Of a stretch of DNA of 64,000 bases, positions 1 through 54,507 are shown piece after piece. Source of the DNA: Propionibacteriaceae bacterium. GTDB lineage: Bacteria; Actinomycetota; Actinomycetes; Propionibacteriales; Propionibacteriaceae. The DNA is taken from the NCBI GenBank assembly GCA_031285845.1, contig JAITVK010000002.1, positions 1 to 64,000 of the forward strand, written 5' to 3'. Below the pieces are notes generated by a model that saw nothing but the letters and a program-made list of their open reading frames with translations, did not search any database and was not told the DNA's origin. Position 1 is the stretch's first letter, and each line of letters begins with the position of its first letter. The position numbers were made by a program, and so were the translations under genes.

Positions 1-320
<320 letters not shown>

Positions 321-23749: not shown

Positions 23750-23937
23750 GTTCTGCCACGCGATGTAGGTCTGGTATCTGATTAAGGTGGACGCCGCTTC
23801 TGCTTGTTGACAGGCGGTCTCCGACTTCTCACAGGCTCGCGGTCCTTCGATCGGTGCCCGCCCATGGCTGAAAGATGGTCCGCCAGCTGGTCATCCACCG
23901 TTCGTCTCACGTGGTCCACGCGCTCGCTATAGGTCAT
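23632..23937 (-). pseudogene. 5' remnant of an AAA ATPase-DUF4143 gene, frameshifted and cut
   Basis: Minus strand from ATG 23937: MTYSERVDHVRRTVDD in one frame, then, after a shift, a degraded Walker A region IEGPRACEKSETA (family: GPRACGKT), then after a second shift VHLNQIPDLHRVAELNPTDL and the Walker B/partner region PRLIDEWKLAPEPWNTIRHE. Similarity then stops in the truncated glycosyltransferase gene. It matches the same region of the copies at 49341 and 54178. Two frameshifts plus the Gly to Glu change in the P-loop show it is dead. Confidence 0.85.
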
Positions 23938-23990
23938 TTCGCAAGGGTTTCATCTACGTTTCTGCAATAGTCTCAGGGACTGTTTTGCAA
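23922..23990 (-). repeat. Three 23-bp direct repeats at the start of the ATPase remnant
   Basis: On the minus strand, units at 23990-23968, 23967-23945 and 23944-23922 begin TTGCAAAA, TTGCAGAA and TTGCGAAA. The period is exactly 23 bp. The third unit contains the ATG of the remnant at offset 8. Beyond the first 8 bp the units are more diverged than in the other two arrays, as expected of a decaying locus. Confidence 0.7.
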
Positions 23991-49125: not shown

Positions 49126-49250
49126 GCGGAGGCTTGGCGGCGCCTGCTCGCTGGGAGGAGCTTCTTTCCATTGTCGTGCTCACCGCGGGGCTGGGCTTGT
49201 CAGACAGCCGTTGGCCGGCGGGACACTGGCGCAGGGCGGTCGTGTTCTCG

Positions 49251-49342
49251 GCTAGAAGTACAGTAGAAATCCGGCTAAACGGCTAATAGAACTCAGGCTA
49301 TACGGATAGTAGAACTCAGGCTAGAGGTCCAATAGCTGTCAT
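49251..49342 (+). repeat. Four 23-bp direct repeats running into the start codon of an ATPase-DUF4143 gene
   Basis: Units 49251-49273, 49274-49296, 49297-49319 and 49320-49342 all begin GCTA. Units 2 and 3 share GCTA..ACGG..TA.TAGAACTCAG almost fully; unit 1 has AGTAGAAATCCG in the same place; unit 4 is more diverged (GCTAGAGGTCCAATAGC) and its last two bases are the first two of the ATG at 49341. Each unit holds a TAATAG/TAGTAG/CAATAG hexamer that resembles a -10 box. No Shine-Dalgarno is present. Confidence 0.88.
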
Positions 49343-50614
49343 GGACTACCTGCCTCGACTGTTCGACGCCTATCTGCCGGATCTGATGTCCGTCTTCCCG
49401 GCCTGCGCGATTGATGGTCCCAAGGCGGTCGGCAAGACAGCGACTGCCTCGCGCTTGGTCGCGGCGACCGTACGTCTCGATCGACCAGCGGAGGTTCAGG
49501 CTTTCCGACAAGATCCAGATCGCCTGTCGCGGCTGGCTCGGCCGCTGCTGATCGATGAGTGGCAGATGTATCCGCCAATATGGATCTGGTTCGACGCGCT
49601 GTGGACGATGGGGCGCCTGCTGGTTCGTTTCTTCTCACCGGCTCAGCCACGCCGCAGCAAGCTCCTCGCCACTCGGGCGCTGGGCGGATCATTCATCTGC
49701 GCATGCGCCCGTTTTCCCTCGTGGAACGCCAGATGGACACGCCGGCGGTTTCCCTTGCCGAGCTTCTTGCCGGTTCGCGCCCAGCGATATCGGGCCAAAG
49801 CCACGTGTCCATTCAAGCGTACGCGGACGAGATCACCCGTGGTGGACTGCCAGGTCTGCGCGCGGTTCCTGCTCGGTTTCGTAGCACGGCCTGGGACGGG
49901 TATCTTTCTGAGGTTTTCGACCGTGATCTGCCGGAACTGGGACGCGTGGTGCGTCGGCCAGACACGCTACGGAATTGGCTGCGCTCGTACGCGGCGGCCA
50001 CGGGCTCGATCGCCAGTTACACCGACATTTTGGACAACGCCTGTCCGAACGAATCCGACAAACCTACCAAAGCGACCACTCTCGCCTGGCGGGAGGCGCT
50101 CGGCAAAATGTGGCTGCTCGATCCATTGTCTGCCTGGGACGACCCTCTCCATCATCTCGGTCGTCTGGTCTCCGCCAGCAAGCATCACCTGGCCGATCCA
50201 GCGTTGCCAGCGCACCTGCTCGGCGTCACCGCTGACACGCTGCTGTCCTCCCCTGTCCCCGACAGTCCGAAAACCCCTCGGCTTGGAACGTTGTTCGGGG
50301 CCTTGTTCGAGTCGCTGGTCACTCTGTCGATCCGCGCCTACGCGACCATCATTGGCGTACGGGCGTCCCACTTGCGTACGCGCAATGGCGACCGAGAGAT
50401 TGACCTCATGTTGACTAGGGCCGATGGTCGATCTGTCGCCATCGAGGTCAAGTCGTCCGCTGACATCAACGCGCGAGATGTCCGCCACTTGGTCTGGCTG
50501 CGTGGTCGGATGGGTGAGGATCTGCTTGACGCCATCGTCATCAACACTGGCCCAGCAGCGTACCGCCGCGGCGACGGGATCGGCGTCATCCCCGCGAGCC
50601 TCATCGGAGTGTGA
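49341..50614 (+). pseudogene. AAA ATPase-DUF4143 protein, single-base frameshift
   Basis: The first part reads MDYLPRLFDAYLPDLM, Walker A CAIDGPKAVGKTATASRL and LLIDEWQMYPPIW, then leaves frame near 49583. The frame one base away continues DLVRRAVDDGAPAGSFLLTG with no loss of residues, so one G is missing in what should be TGGGAT. The rest is intact: SGQSHVSIQAYADEITRGGL, LRNWLRSYAAATGS, then the PD-(D/E)XK-like HLRTRNGDREIDLML and VAIEVKSS. With the base restored it would be ~424 aa, like the copy at 54178. Either a recent pseudogene or a sequencing error. Confidence 0.88.
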
Positions 50615-51169
50615 GAGGTGAGGATGCGCTGACTAGGGATGGTGGCCATGCCGACCGTGACGGATGGCCGCCCGGTTTTGCGGCGTCGGCACCGGCTCTC
50701 CTTCGCGCTATTAGAGAGGTGTCGGCACGATATTCTTGCACTGTGAATGCTGATGTCTAGGTGAATGCATTCAGTCTGTACCATGGAGGCGAAGTCTTTG
50801 TGGCCGCGGAACGCAGGGGTGGCGCTGGCTGGACGTTCGGGGCCTAAGTCACGCCGCTAGTGGGTTGGTCTGGCGCCCCAGAGCATGAGACCGCCGTTGA
50901 TAGCTCCACGGTGATTCGGAAGAACCGGTCCCAGGTGAGCCCAATCTGGCACTCGCCTGAGCGTTGGGCGGCGGGTTCGACGTGACAATGCTTGGATGCG
51001 GATAGGTGAAACATCGATTGTGACCCGTGATCCGAGGTAGAGTCCGGGGTCTGCTTAGTGTCAGGGCTTGGCGAAGTCTGTGAACTTTGTCTGCAGGTCA
51101 ACACATATTTCAGGAGGACTGACCATGTGGTGTCCTGGTGGTTTGGGTGCTGCGGTCTTCCCGGTTCCG
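50615..51169. other. Intergenic region with no recognisable gene
   Basis: 555 bp between two convergent ATPase-DUF4143 copies. I see no ORF with a ribosome site or a family motif, and no clear repeat. Confidence 0.5.
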
Positions 51170-52176
51170 TCATCCCATTTCCCACAACGCCGACACGGGC
51201 ATCCCCCAAATCTTGTCACCCATCGTGACTGTGTCGTGAGCCAGGGTGAGAACGGCTCCGCCGAGGAAGCGGTCCCCGAGTTTCTCGGCCAGCGTACGGA
51301 TGGATTTGGCTTGACTCGACTGGTAGGTCTGGCTGGCTTTGACCTCGATGAGGAAGACTCGACCGTCGGCGTACTCGATGACAAGATCGACCTCGACGCC
51401 GCCGCGATTCCGGTAGTGATAGAGGTTGAGATCTTCACTGGACCATGTCTTTTGTTTCATCAGCTCGCTGACGACGAACATCTCAAGCAGTCCACCGAGG
51501 TGTGTGCTCGTTTCGGGTGTTTCAAGCGCGGCAACGTTGACTCGGCCGAGATGCATCGCCAGCGCAGAGTCACTCACCGAGAGTTTGTGGCGGCCGATCT
51601 CGCGAGTCGTCAGGTTCGGGGTCCACGGGGGAAGGTCGTCGATCAAGTGGAGGGTGCGCAACGCGGTCAAATACGCTCCGATGGAGGAGGCGGGCATGCC
51701 AAGATCATTCGCCATTCTCGTCGGAACGGTCTCACTGCCGTGAGCGGCCGCGACCAGGCGCAACACTTCGCTCAGTCGGTTCGCCGCCAAGCTGCTCGAT
51801 ATTTCGGGAAGATCGCGAGTGACCATTCGACCGAGGTAGCCCTCCATCCAGTATCGGCGAACCCGGGGATCCAAGGTCAAAACCTCGGGGTAGCCACTAG
51901 CCCCGAGCGCGTTGGCGTACGTCGAACGATTCCAGTCGGAGATGTGGTGAGGGGACGCCAGGAGGTCACGCGCTGCGGCTGCGAAGTCATCCCAGTGGCT
52001 GTGGATCTCCCCCTGACTGAGGCCGCTCAAGCGCAACGTGACGGCTCGGCCCGCCAGGGAATCCGGCAGAGCGTTGACTTTCCCACCTGACGCGCGCCTT
52101 CGATGATCAAGACGCGGAAGGATCGGAGCAGTTCGCGCCCTGTCGGCAGAATGTGGCGGTCGATGAGGGTCGTCAT
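51170..52176 (-). pseudogene. AAA ATPase-DUF4143 gene with internal deletion of the Walker B region
   Basis: From ATG 52176: MTTLIDRHILPTGRELLRSF, VLIIEGARQVGKSTL (Walker A), then immediately, with a frame change near 52065, DSLAGRAVTLRLSGLSQGEI, which in this family lies ~60-70 residues further on. The Walker B, DEVQ and sensor segments are therefore missing. The rest is complete: SGYPEVLTLDPRVRRYW, a helix-turn-helix-like MANDLGMPASSIGAYLTALR and the PD-(D/E)XK-like EVDLVIEYADG...FLIEVKAS. Different subfamily (GARQVGKST) from the copies at 49341 and 54178, and no 23-bp repeats precede it. Confidence 0.85.
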
Positions 52177-52675
52177 AGGGCCGTGGTAGCGGAGTAGAAG
52201 GCTGGTGCTACGCAAAACGACAGGGTGATCGAAATTTTGGCAGAAACTTGTGGGCCCCAGGGCGGAACTGGGAACTGGGACTTCCAGTCGGCAGTGCACT
52301 CTGTCGCAAACCATGGCGCCGATCACGGCGAAGTTCAGGCCAGAGGAGAAAACTGAGTTTTGACGGTCGCGGAGTCGATTGGAGCGACGCCGTCCAACGC
52401 GATTCGAATGTTTGTCGCTGCGTTCAACAAGCGTGGGGGATTTCCATGTGGCTCAGCAAACCCGAACGGCTTCAGCCAGGAAACCCTCGCCGCCATGGAT
52501 GCCGCTGTTCACCGCTGAAACTTAATCGGCCCGTTCGACACCACCGACGAAATGTGGAGCGAGGTCCTGGCTGGTGATGACGCGTCGGCTTGAGATCACC
52601 AGCCGCTTCGCGAAAGACGCCAAATTGACTATTGACATATCTCAAGAGTGAGGATGGTCTCGTTTTGACTGCCGT
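52177..52675. other. Intergenic region with no recognisable gene
   Basis: About 500 bp upstream of the deleted ATPase copy. No gene, tandem repeat or hairpin stands out; it presumably includes the old promoter of that gene. Confidence 0.45.
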
Positions 52676-52835
52676 GTGGTGAGGATGAGGGCGATCTCGT
52701 GGTCGCCGTTGCGGGTACGAAGATGAGCCGCACTGGCCTCCGCTCTTAGAGCGTGCACCCCGACGCTGAGTGTGACCAGTGATTCGAACAACCGCCCAAG
52801 CAGCGTGCCCTGTTGCGGGCCCAGGGTGGTGCCTG
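52676..52835 (-). pseudogene. Duplicated internal fragment of the ATPase-DUF4143 gene
   Basis: 160 bp that repeat 53091-53250, inside the intact gene, in the same orientation and about 94% identical by eye. Encodes LLGRLFESLVTLSV, then SAAHLRTRNGDHEIALIL; the catalytic Asp of EIDL is Ala here. The offset is 415 bp. It has neither start nor end of the gene and is a duplication scar that could serve as a recombination partner. Confidence 0.88.
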
Positions 52836-52894
52836 TTTCATGCCTGCAGTGTGGTTGTACACACCAACCCGGTTCTCCACGCGAGGCCAGGTTT

Positions 52895-54178
52895 TCACGG
52901 CCCCAGTAGCGCAAGCGGGATGACGCCGATACCATCCGGGCGGCGGTACGCGATAGGCCCGGTGTTGATGATGACTCGATCCAGAATGAGATCCCCATAA
53001 ATGGAACGCAGCCACGCGAGGTGTCGGACATCGTGGTCCGAGACCGTGTTTGAGAGTTTGATCTCGATGGCGAGGATTTTCCCAGTCGTGGTGGTGAGGA
53101 TGAGGTCGATCTCGTGGTCGCCGTTGCGGGTACGAAGATGAGCCACACTGGCCTCCGCCCTTTGAGCGAGCACCCTGACGCTGAGTGTGACCAGTGATTC
53201 GAACAACCGCCCAAGCAGCGTGCCCTGTTGCGGGCCCAGGGTGGCGCCCGACCCGTCGAGCAAGGACTCACGAGTCAACCCCAACAGGCGTGCGGCGAGC
53301 GCGGGATCAGCCAGATGGTGCGTGGGAGTCTGGCTAAGGCGAGCAAGTTCATTCCCCAGGGGCGACCAGGACGGAAGGGGGTCGAGAAGCCAGATATGCT
53401 GCAACGCGTCGCGATAAGCGGTGGTTGTCGAACGAGCGGGTTTGCGGGACCAGCCCGCTGTTGCTGCGTCGAGGATCTGGGTGTAACTGGCCGTGCTCCC
53501 CGTCGCGGCGGCGTACGCGCGCAGCCAGTCAAGGAGGACGTTTGGGCGGCGTACAGACAAGCCTTGGTCGGGAATATCCCGATCCACGGCGTTGCGCAGA
53601 TAACTATCAAGTTCGCCCCTGAGGAGGCGGTCTGGCAGTCCGCGCAGTCCAGGGAATCCCGACCCCATGATCTCGTCGACATAGTTCGCCAAGCCAAAAT
53701 CGACGTGACCTTCCAGTGGAGCCCGTGAGCCCGCGAGGAGTTGCGTCAGACTCACGGTGGGCACCGCCAGATCGCGCTCGCTGAAAGCAAGTGGCCGCAT
53801 GCGTACTCGGGTGATCCGACCGGCGCCGGTGTGGGACGTGGCGCCGATCGCTGGGCTGGCGCTGCCCGTGAAGAGAAATTGACCAGGAGACCGGTCGTCA
53901 TCGACAGCTCGACGCACGACATCCCACACCTCGGGAACCTTTTGCCACTCGTCGAGAAGGATCGGACGTTCCCTTGTCAGGATCGCTGTCGGATCGGCGC
54001 TGACTGCTTCGCGAACCGCCTTCGAGTCGAGAAGGATTGTGGAGGTCGCTCGCTTACGGGCTGTCGACGTCTTCCCAATCGCTTTGGCCCCGTCGATCAA
54101 CACTGCCGGGAGCGCGCTCAAGAGCAAGTCGAGCTCGTCGTCTAGCACGCGGCGTACGTATTCCACGTGTCGAATCAT
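52895..54178 (-). CDS. Intact AAA ATPase-DUF4143 (PD-(D/E)XK-like) protein
   Basis: 427 aa from ATG 54178 (MIRHVEYV); a TTG at 54205 is in frame but inside the upstream repeat. Walker A VLIDGAKAIGKTSTA (~27-40), Walker B and partner LLDEWQKVPEVW, sensor FLFTGSASP, a middle helical/HTH-like part (LLDWLRAYAAATGSTASYTQ), and a C-terminal nuclease-like fold HLRTRNGDHEIDLIL..LAIEIKLS with Asp, Glu and Lys in PD-(D/E)XK order. Function unknown for this family to my knowledge. The only undamaged copy in the window. Confidence 0.92.
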   Translation of the reverse strand: MIRHVEYVRRVLDDELDLLLSALPAVLIDGAKAIGKTSTARKRATSTILLDSKAVREAVSADPTAILTRERPILLDEWQKVPEVWDVVRRAVDDDRSPGQFLFTGSASPAIGATSHTGAGRITRVRMRPLAFSERDLAVPTVSLTQLLAGSRAPLEGHVDFGLANYVDEIMGSGFPGLRGLPDRLLRGELDSYLRNAVDRDIPDQGLSVRRPNVLLDWLRAYAAATGSTASYTQILDAATAGWSRKPARSTTTAYRDALQHIWLLDPLPSWSPLGNELARLSQTPTHHLADPALAARLLGLTRESLLDGSGATLGPQQGTLLGRLFESLVTLSVRVLAQRAEASVAHLRTRNGDHEIDLILTTTTGKILAIEIKLSNTVSDHDVRHLAWLRSIYGDLILDRVIINTGPIAYRRPDGIGVIPLALLGP

Positions 54179-54233
54179 ACCAACAGCAGGAGGCGAATCA
54201 TACAAATAGCAGGACTTGAATCATACAAAGAGC
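54165..54233 (-). repeat. Three 23-bp direct repeats overlapping the start codon of the intact ATPase-DUF4143 gene
   Basis: On the minus strand, units at 54233-54211, 54210-54188 and 54187-54165 read GCTCTTTGTATGATTC, GCTATTTGTATGATTC and GCTGTTGGTATGATTC at their starts, then diverge before CCT. The start codon (ATG ATT C) is itself the repeated GTATGATTC of the third unit. TATGAT in each unit also resembles a -10 hexamer. Confidence 0.9.
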
Positions 54234-54507
54234 ATGAATTGAGTTGAGGGAATGGTCGCTACTGCGTGCGGGGTTTAGCGCGCGGGGACCGGTCGTACTC
54301 CCGATCCAGGCTCCCCGCATCGCCGAACTGCTTGCTCAGCAGGTACTTCATTGCGCGCTGAGCAAGCAACGGACTGCGGCGTATGCACATTATGAGATCT
54401 AGTTCATGTCTTCCCAGAATCGCCGTCCGTACCGATTCTGACGGAGGTTTTGCTAGTTTCGCGACTTCGCTTTCCGTGGTCGGGGGTTGGTTCCGTATAC
54501 TGCGGTC

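What the first reader, a model, noticed from the sequence alone, without database searches (positions are those of the whole stretch)
49251..54233. ATPase-nuclease genes each preceded by locus-specific 23-bp direct repeats that run into the start codon
Three members of one AAA ATPase-DUF4143 subfamily (49341, 54178 and the remnant at 23937) each have 3-4 tandem direct repeats of exactly 23 bp, in gene orientation. The repeat sequence differs between loci (units begin GCTA, GCTnTTnGTATGATTC, TTGC), yet period, position and overlap of the last unit with the ATG are the same. No gene has a Shine-Dalgarno, and units hold -10-like hexamers. The proteins join an ATPase, an HTH-like segment and a PD-(D/E)XK-like fold. 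The constant architecture with changing sequence suggests a self-recognised element: each ATPase-nuclease may bind, copy or cut its own repeats, or the copy number may set expression. I know of no described system with this layout.
Basis: partly seen in the sequence, partly recalled or inferred. Interest (0 to 1): 0.82.

Follow-up and report, generated by a model that had tools for sequence, protein, structure and literature searches.

The report
ATPase-nuclease reads its own promoter repeats
A very common but uncharacterised family of bacterial ATPase-nuclease genes (a leading anti-phage defence candidate) carries, right at each gene's own promoter, a 23-bp repeat array whose sequence differs from gene to gene and changes in step with three amino acids of the protein, so each protein appears to recognise only its own gene.

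Summary
Genes A (49341) and B (start GTG 54166, not ATG 54178) carry four and three 23-bp direct repeats over their promoters. The 23937 remnant shows only a decayed trace. The genes belong to PADLOC candidate defence family PDC-S01 (STAND-like ATPase + winged HTH + DUF4143 PD-(D/E)XK nuclease). In 154 non-redundant homologues down to about 30% identity, from several phyla, lag 23 was the strongest of lags 10-45 in 138; mean autocorrelation was 0.50 at 23 and 0.42 at 46 against 0.25 elsewhere. Unit sequence differs by locus, yet protein and repeat covary. Residues 245 and 246 (HTH recognition helix) track unit bases 8 and 12-13; residue 347 (hairpin beside the nuclease active site) tracks bases 2-4. 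The pairs were found on 127 loci and ranked 1-4 of 9,706 on 38 fresh ones. Over tree-independent pairs 27 switches went the predicted way, none the other. In the host's genome each unit occurs only in its own array. Best reading: each protein binds its own array, whose last unit usually holds the -10, and represses itself. Self-recognition is strongly supported by sequence; repression, the trigger and any cutting are inferred.

The parts
49250..49341 (+). Array A: four 23-bp direct repeats GGCTAGAAGTACAGTAGAAATCC / GGCTAAACGGCTAATAGAACTCA / GGCTATACGGATAGTAGAACTCA / GGCTAGAGGTCCAATAGCTGTCA; last base is the A of the ATG
   Evidence: unit occurs nowhere else in the 2.68-Mb genome with up to 3 mismatches
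49341..50614 (+). Gene A, DUF4143 ATPase-nuclease; one frameshift near 49560 (49341-50414 frame then 49559-50614 frame)
54166..54234 (-). Array B: three 23-bp direct repeats TGCTCTTTGTATGATTCAAGTCC / TGCTATTTGTATGATTCGCCTCC / TGCTGTTGGTATGATTCGACACG; last base is the G of the GTG start
   Evidence: only three matches in the whole genome at up to 2 mismatches, all here
54174..54179 (-). -10-like hexamer TATGAT (unit positions 10-15) of the last B unit, 7 nt before the GTG: leaderless promoter (inferred)
   Evidence: sequence; TANNNT at unit 10-15 in 118/169 last units against 148/387 other units
52895..54166 (-). Gene B, 423-aa ATPase-wHTH-nuclease (PDC-S01 / DUF4143)
   Evidence: AF2 model pLDDT 92.3
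54068..54091 (-). Walker A of B (residues 26-33, GAKAIGKT)
53396..53434 (-). HTH recognition helix of B (residues 245-257); R245 tracks unit base 8, S246 tracks bases 12-13
53114..53131 (-). Hairpin tip of B nuclease domain (residues 346-351); R347 tracks unit bases 2-4, N348 bases 2-4, D350 base 23
53057..53107 (-). PD-(D/E)XK active-site residues of B: D354 ... E368-x-K370, invariant in 103 homologues
23921..23989 (-). Decayed three-unit array before a remnant gene
   Evidence: weak
23782..23919 (-). Remnant of the 5' end of a homologue (GTG start, MDHVRRTVDDQLADHL, then out of frame)
51170..52178 (-). Third DUF4143 gene of the window, another subfamily, broken by a frameshift; no 23-bp array seen before it

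Best explanation
Each gene encodes a DNA-binding STAND-like ATPase-nuclease that recognises only the 23-bp direct-repeat array at its own promoter. One protein unit reads one 23-bp repeat in two places on one DNA face about a helical turn apart. The N-terminus of the HTH recognition helix (residues 245-246) reads bases 8 and 12-13; a hairpin next to the nuclease active site (residues 347, 348, 350) reads bases 23 and 1-4. Bases G9 and T15 are shared by nearly all members. Copies bind side by side at fixed 23-bp steps. The last unit usually contains the -10 element and, in Actinobacteria, ends at the start codon of a leaderless gene, so occupancy should shut off the gene's own transcription. 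Homologues drift in specificity, so many (up to 21 or more per genome) can coexist with little cross-regulation. Shown by computation: the array, its fixed spacing and position, selection on its core, its absence elsewhere in the host's genome (three units searched), and residue-base covariation. Inferred: physical binding, oligomer on the array, repression, release of repression or nuclease activation on a trigger such as phage attack.
For: Lag 23 top in 138 of 154 homologues; mean autocorrelation 0.498 at 23, 0.418 at 46, about 0.25 at other lags including 22 and 24. Same in most of 107 fresh loci including 31-40% identical ones, and in Bacteroides, Prosthecochloris, Collinsella and Mycobacterium plasmid homologues. 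Covariation found on 127 loci: 245-8, 347-3, 246-12, 347-2, 246-13; on 38 independent loci ranks 1-4 of 9,706 are 246-12, 245-8, 347-4, 347-3. K245 goes with G8 50/62 and 19/23, R245 with T8 54/59 and 12/15; T246 with G12 34/38 and 16/16; R/K347 with C3 66/71 and 17/17. Tree-independent pairs: 27 switches as predicted, 0 opposite, over six partly overlapping tests. Signal persists using only the unit farthest from the promoter and is absent from flanking DNA at these residues, except D350 with the base just before the array. A 30-44% identity set again puts 245 and 246 in three of the top six pairs. Orthologues: core 77%, spacer 45%, flank 29% identical. Units absent elsewhere in own genome. 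Residues 245-257 are a helix, 346-351 a hairpin tip.
Against: No binding, transcription or cleavage data exist. Repression is inferred from position only; activation by the array is not excluded. In many non-actinobacterial homologues and some others the array ends 15-60 bp before the start, so overlap with the start codon is not essential. Catalytic residues are invariant, so an autorepressor role alone cannot be the whole function. Gene A departs from the code at base 8 (K245 with C8, seen in 6/62 K cases). The rules for 347-2 and 348-4 did not clearly beat the majority-base baseline in the validation set. Phasing used a common profile, which favours shared G9/T15.
Confidence: 0.72

Rival explanations
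1. The array is the nuclease's own cleavage or nicking target, used for homing, exclusion of incoming copies, or array turnover; promoter overlap is secondary.
For: The hairpin that tracks bases 2-4 carries the strand of catalytic D354, so DNA should lie near the active site; D354, E368, K370 are invariant in 103 homologues.
Against: Units occur only at the gene itself, so cutting would destroy the gene; copy number is stable between relatives (55/59 pairs); no excess of unit copies elsewhere in 404 kb of flanks (2 hits, control 1).
Confidence: 0.12
2. Iteron-like or Orc1/Cdc6-ORB-like system: the protein is a replication or maintenance initiator and the array its origin, autoregulated as in plasmid Rep genes.
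For: Direct repeats of about 20 bp directly upstream of an autoregulated winged-helix gene are the iteron layout (own knowledge); AAA/winged-helix folds such as Cdc6/Orc1 are among weaker fold matches.
Against: The genes sit singly on large chromosomes and contigs, often many per genome, not beside replication initiator genes in the records looked at, though one lies some 1.7 kb from a ParA gene on a plasmid; a nuclease active site is invariant.
Confidence: 0.06
3. The array binds a separate host factor or is merely a stack of sigma-70 -10 promoters (23 bp = 6 + 17, the -35/-10 register), and the protein does not read it.
For: TANNNT falls at unit 10-15, and the 23-bp step equals the hexamer-to-hexamer distance.
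Against: Covariation with protein residues at the recognition helix and hairpin, also for the unit farthest from the promoter; unit sequences differ between paralogues of one genome, which a common host factor would not produce.
Confidence: 0.04
4. The cognate protein binds the array but activates its own gene (positive feedback) rather than repressing it.
For: Multiple upstream units could act as an activating array (inference; the units lie upstream of and over the promoter).
Against: The last unit normally covers the -10 and start site itself, a repressing position.
Confidence: 0.06

Closest known systems
PDC-S01 (PADLOC phage-defence candidate), DUF4143 / AAA_14 proteins
   Same: The window proteins are members by profile (PDLC04790 E=9e-74; PF13635, PF13173). 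The family is described as ATPase fused to PD-(D/E)XK and the fourth most common defence candidate in prokaryotes, not validated (PMC12988326).
   Different: No paper found mentions promoter repeats, self-recognition or a DNA code for this family.
Archaeal STAND-like ATPases PABY2304 (2QEN) and SSO1545 (2FNA)
   Same: Best fold matches over the ATPase and winged-helix part (Z 14.4 over 251 and 12.6 over 249 residues).
   Different: 18-20% (2QEN) and 11-14% (2FNA) identity; the aligned range ends near residue 296, before the nuclease domain; no DNA array known to me.
Plasmid iterons with Rep initiators (own knowledge)
   Same: Direct repeats near 20 bp upstream of the gene for the winged-helix protein that binds them, with autoregulation.
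   Different: Here an ATPase-nuclease, mostly chromosomal, many per genome, no sign of replication; specificity split between a recognition helix and a nuclease hairpin.
Archaeal Orc1/Cdc6 with ORB repeats (own knowledge)
   Same: ATPase plus winged helix with repeats beside its own gene.
   Different: Only a weak fold match; nuclease domain; array lies over the promoter, not an origin.
Autoregulated toxin-antitoxin and restriction controller operators (own knowledge)
   Same: Locus-specific operators that avoid cross-talk between paralogues.
   Different: Usually short palindromes and a separate regulator; here one protein holds ATPase, DNA reader and nuclease and uses direct repeats of strict 23-bp period.

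Membership tests
PDC-S01 / DUF4143 (PF13635) | Profile match to PADLOC PDC-S01 and PF13635 | tested here: met
PDC-S01 / DUF4143 (PF13635) | Anti-phage activity | not testable with these tools
   described as unvalidated in PMC12988326
PD-(D/E)XK nuclease superfamily | Catalytic D ... ExK in a beta-hairpin/strand arrangement | tested here: met
   D354, E368, K370 invariant in 103 sequences; strands 340-345, 352-358, 364-369
STAND NTPases | Walker A/B P-loop ATPase followed by winged helix | tested here: met
   GxxxxGKT and DEWQ conserved; fold matches 2QEN, 2FNA, NLR, CED-4, Avs4
STAND NTPases | Oligomerisation and activation on ligand | not testable with these tools
   none
Iteron / Rep initiator systems | Direct repeats upstream of the gene of the protein that reads them | tested here: met
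   (reading inferred from covariation)
Iteron / Rep initiator systems | Acts as replication initiator at a replication origin | not tested
   chromosomal, multi-copy occurrence argues against it
Autoregulated promoter-operator systems | Operator overlaps the gene's own promoter | tested here: inconclusive
   -10-like hexamers in the last unit next to the start, but the promoter is assigned by consensus only and the sigma-70 scan found none at B
Autoregulated promoter-operator systems | Protein changes transcription of its own gene | not testable with these tools
   needs reporter assay

The most novel reading that the evidence does not exclude
A self-addressed defence element: each ATPase-nuclease polymerises along its own repeat array, which acts both as an off-switch and as the platform that holds the nuclease inactive next to DNA. 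When a phage disturbs the complex (by depleting ATP or displacing or mimicking the protein), transcription and the nuclease are released together. Homologues diversify their DNA address through a readable three-residue code, so that many independent sensors can coexist in one cell. Related DUF4143 subfamilies use locus-specific palindromes in the same place.
Probability: 0.3. Interest if true: 0.95.

Novelty: new variant of a known kind. Interest (0 to 1): 0.86.

Why it matters
PDC-S01 is reported as the fourth most common defence candidate in prokaryotes, with tens of thousands of copies and no known mechanism (PMC12988326). Finding that its members carry a self-specific DNA address, and which residues read which bases, gives an immediate handle: the likely target DNA is known for every member of this clade, so binding, regulation, nuclease activity and triggering can be assayed at once. 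The residue-base rules (245, 246, 347) also give a natural recognition code that predicts unit bases from the protein and could be used to test and reprogram specificity.

Tried and rejected
Third example at 23937 as independent support: too decayed. Phage carriage: no relative in viral contigs with the close-family profile, four distant hits in unannotated faecal 'phage' scaffolds only. Regulon: no further unit sites in the host's genome or in 404 kb of flanks. Copy-number switch: stable between relatives. Units as palindromic sites in this clade: inverted repeats not enriched (0 of 60). Known structure by sequence: none. Literature: DUF4143, COG1373, PF13635/PF13173, PDC-S01, 23-bp repeats gave no functional report. 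A profile of very diverse sequences was too loose for the genome scan. Sigma-70 consensus scan found no promoter with a -35 at B, as expected if actinobacterial promoters are mainly defined by the -10.

Full report
WHAT IS THERE. Gene A (49341, +) is preceded by four units of exactly 23 bp (49250-49341) and gene B (-) by three (54234-54166). Both reach p<=0.0005 against shuffles, and nothing else in the window comes near. B most plausibly starts at GTG 54166, seven bases after the TATGAT in the last unit: a leaderless gene, which explains the missing Shine-Dalgarno. A starts at ATG 49341, whose A is the last base of its fourth unit. A is frameshifted near 49560. The case at 23937 is a remnant with a decayed array and is weak on its own. 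The host's genome holds eight DUF4143 hits. The one at C29:139635-140900 is an intact member of the same subfamily with four clear 23-bp units. The window's middle DUF4143 gene belongs to another subfamily and shows no such array.

WHAT THE PROTEINS ARE. B matches PF13635 (DUF4143) and PF13173 (AAA_14) and PADLOC's single-gene candidate PDC-S01 at E=9e-74. PMC12988326 calls PDC-S01 the fourth most common defence in prokaryotes, an ATPase fused to a PD-(D/E)XK domain, not yet validated. A 103-sequence alignment keeps Walker A and B and D354, E368, K370. The AlphaFold2 model has pLDDT 92.3 and pTM 0.92. Its ATPase and winged-helix part is closest to the archaeal STAND-like ATPases 2QEN and 2FNA, then to NLRs, CED-4 and Avs4. 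No solved structure is found by sequence.

THE ARRAY IS A FAMILY TRAIT. Homologues were collected from the genus (19 genomes, up to 21 copies each), family, phylum, class, GTDB genomes (80 loci) and plasmids. In 154 non-redundant upstream regions lag 23 was the strongest of lags 10-45 in 138. Mean autocorrelation was 0.498 at 23 and 0.418 at 46, and about 0.25 at all other lags, 22 and 24 included. Several exceptions visibly hold 23-bp units further upstream. Most of 107 later loci, many only 31-40% identical, behave the same. So do homologues from Bacteroidota, Chlorobiota, Planctomycetes, Gammaproteobacteria and Coriobacteriia. Outside Actinobacteria the array tends to end farther from the start codon, so it is tied to the promoter rather than to the ATG. 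TANNNT lies at unit positions 10-15 in 118/169 last units and 148/387 others. The 23-bp step equals the -35 to -10 hexamer register (6+17), which may or may not be coincidence.

THE UNIT. Phased over all loci, G9 and T15 are nearly universal and A5 common; other positions differ between loci. Within an array positions 23 and 1-17 are alike and 18-22 are not. Between orthologues 75-98% identical, the core is 77% identical, the spacer 45% and the ungapped flank 29%. The core is therefore under selection.

THE PROTEIN READS IT. Mutual information between protein columns and unit positions over 127 loci gave 245-8, 347-3, 246-12, 347-2 and 246-13 on top (the columns there are numbered one lower). 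Lysine 245 goes with G8 (50/62) and arginine with T8 (54/59); T246 with G12 (34/38); R/K347 with C3 (66/71) and H347 with G3 (16/18). These pairs were then tested on 38 fresh loci less than 85% identical to the first set. Of 9,706 pairs the top four were 246-12, 245-8, 347-4 and 347-3. With a tree built without those regions, path-disjoint pairs showed 27 base switches in the predicted direction and none opposite, over six partly overlapping tests. Using only the unit farthest from the promoter gives the same leaders. DNA outside the array gives none of them, apart from D350 with the base directly before the first unit, which is the position 23 contact again. In a separate 30-44% identity set three of the top six pairs are again 245 and 246. 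In the model residue 245 opens the recognition helix (245-257) and 346-351 is the tip of the hairpin whose second strand carries catalytic D354. Two contacts about ten base pairs apart would lie on one face of the DNA. The window genes obey the code, with one exception: B (R245/T8, S246/T12 G13, R347/G2 C3) fits fully; A fits at 246 and 347 but has C8 with K245.

IT IS PRIVATE. The B unit occurs in the 2.68-Mb genome only at its own three sites with up to 2 mismatches. The A unit occurs only in its own array. The C29 unit occurs in its own four sites plus one two-mismatch hit, within the control level. Flanks of 65 loci (404 kb) hold 2 stray matches against 1 in the control. So this is not a regulon and not a dispersed repeat.

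MECHANISM. The most economical account is cooperative binding of the protein to its own direct repeats, covering the -10 and start site, hence autorepression, with homologue-specific addresses that prevent cross-talk. Binding is strongly supported by covariation but not shown; repression is inferred from position. The invariant nuclease site says that control of transcription is not the whole function. The nuclease hairpin itself appears to read the DNA, so the array probably also positions or restrains the nuclease. Cutting of the array, an origin-like role and positive feedback are kept as rivals.

WIDER. Other DUF4143 subfamilies lack the 23-bp array. They more often have locus-specific inverted repeats near the start (arms of 10 or more in 11/40 against 0.55 expected; the 23-bp clade has 0/60) and in some cases 22-bp repeats. 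Self-addressed promoters may thus be a habit of the whole superfamily.

LIMITS. No experiment; many loci come from metagenome assemblies; start codons and promoters are predicted; unit counts have a floor of three in the method; the literature search covers open-licence papers only.

Noticed in passing
window 52663-52839 (-): A partial copy of the B nuclease end (81% identical, residues 318-376) lies just downstream of B; its reading frame shows HEIALILTT, that is the catalytic D354 replaced by A.
   Followed up: no
window 51170-52178 (-): Third DUF4143 gene of another subfamily (MTTLIDRHILPTGRELLRSFRVLIIEGARQVGKS), broken by a frameshift, between A and B; three DUF4143 genes or pseudogenes lie within 5 kb.
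   Followed up: partly
L291, L293, L302, L304, L323, L327, L337, L347 (upstream of start): Other DUF4143 subfamilies carry long locus-specific inverted repeats over the promoter (for example TACCATGAAATTCCGCTAttggaTAGCGGAATTTCATGGTA), 11 of 40 against 0.55 expected.
   Followed up: partly
L296, L299, L099: 22-bp rather than 23-bp direct repeats (or lag 22) before some DUF4143 genes of other subfamilies; lag 22 is top in 8 of 40.
   Followed up: no
L001, 830-960 (own genome C19): Distant DUF4143 paralogue with two palindrome-like copies of ACTCCATGTACTtggcAAAGTACATGGAGT at 33-bp spacing before its start.
   Followed up: no
L071 and L073, between array and start: A hairpin CCCTCTG...CAGAGAGGG lies in the leader between the 23-bp array and the start codon in two related loci.
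   Followed up: no
window 1-205: 22.8 copies of the 9-mer GGGGTGACC (96% match) at the window's left end.
   Followed up: no
L003 (own genome C29:83192): A further degraded homologue whose upstream still shows lag 23 as the top lag (GGTGCAAAACCATGAGTCTCCAG and two more units).
   Followed up: partly
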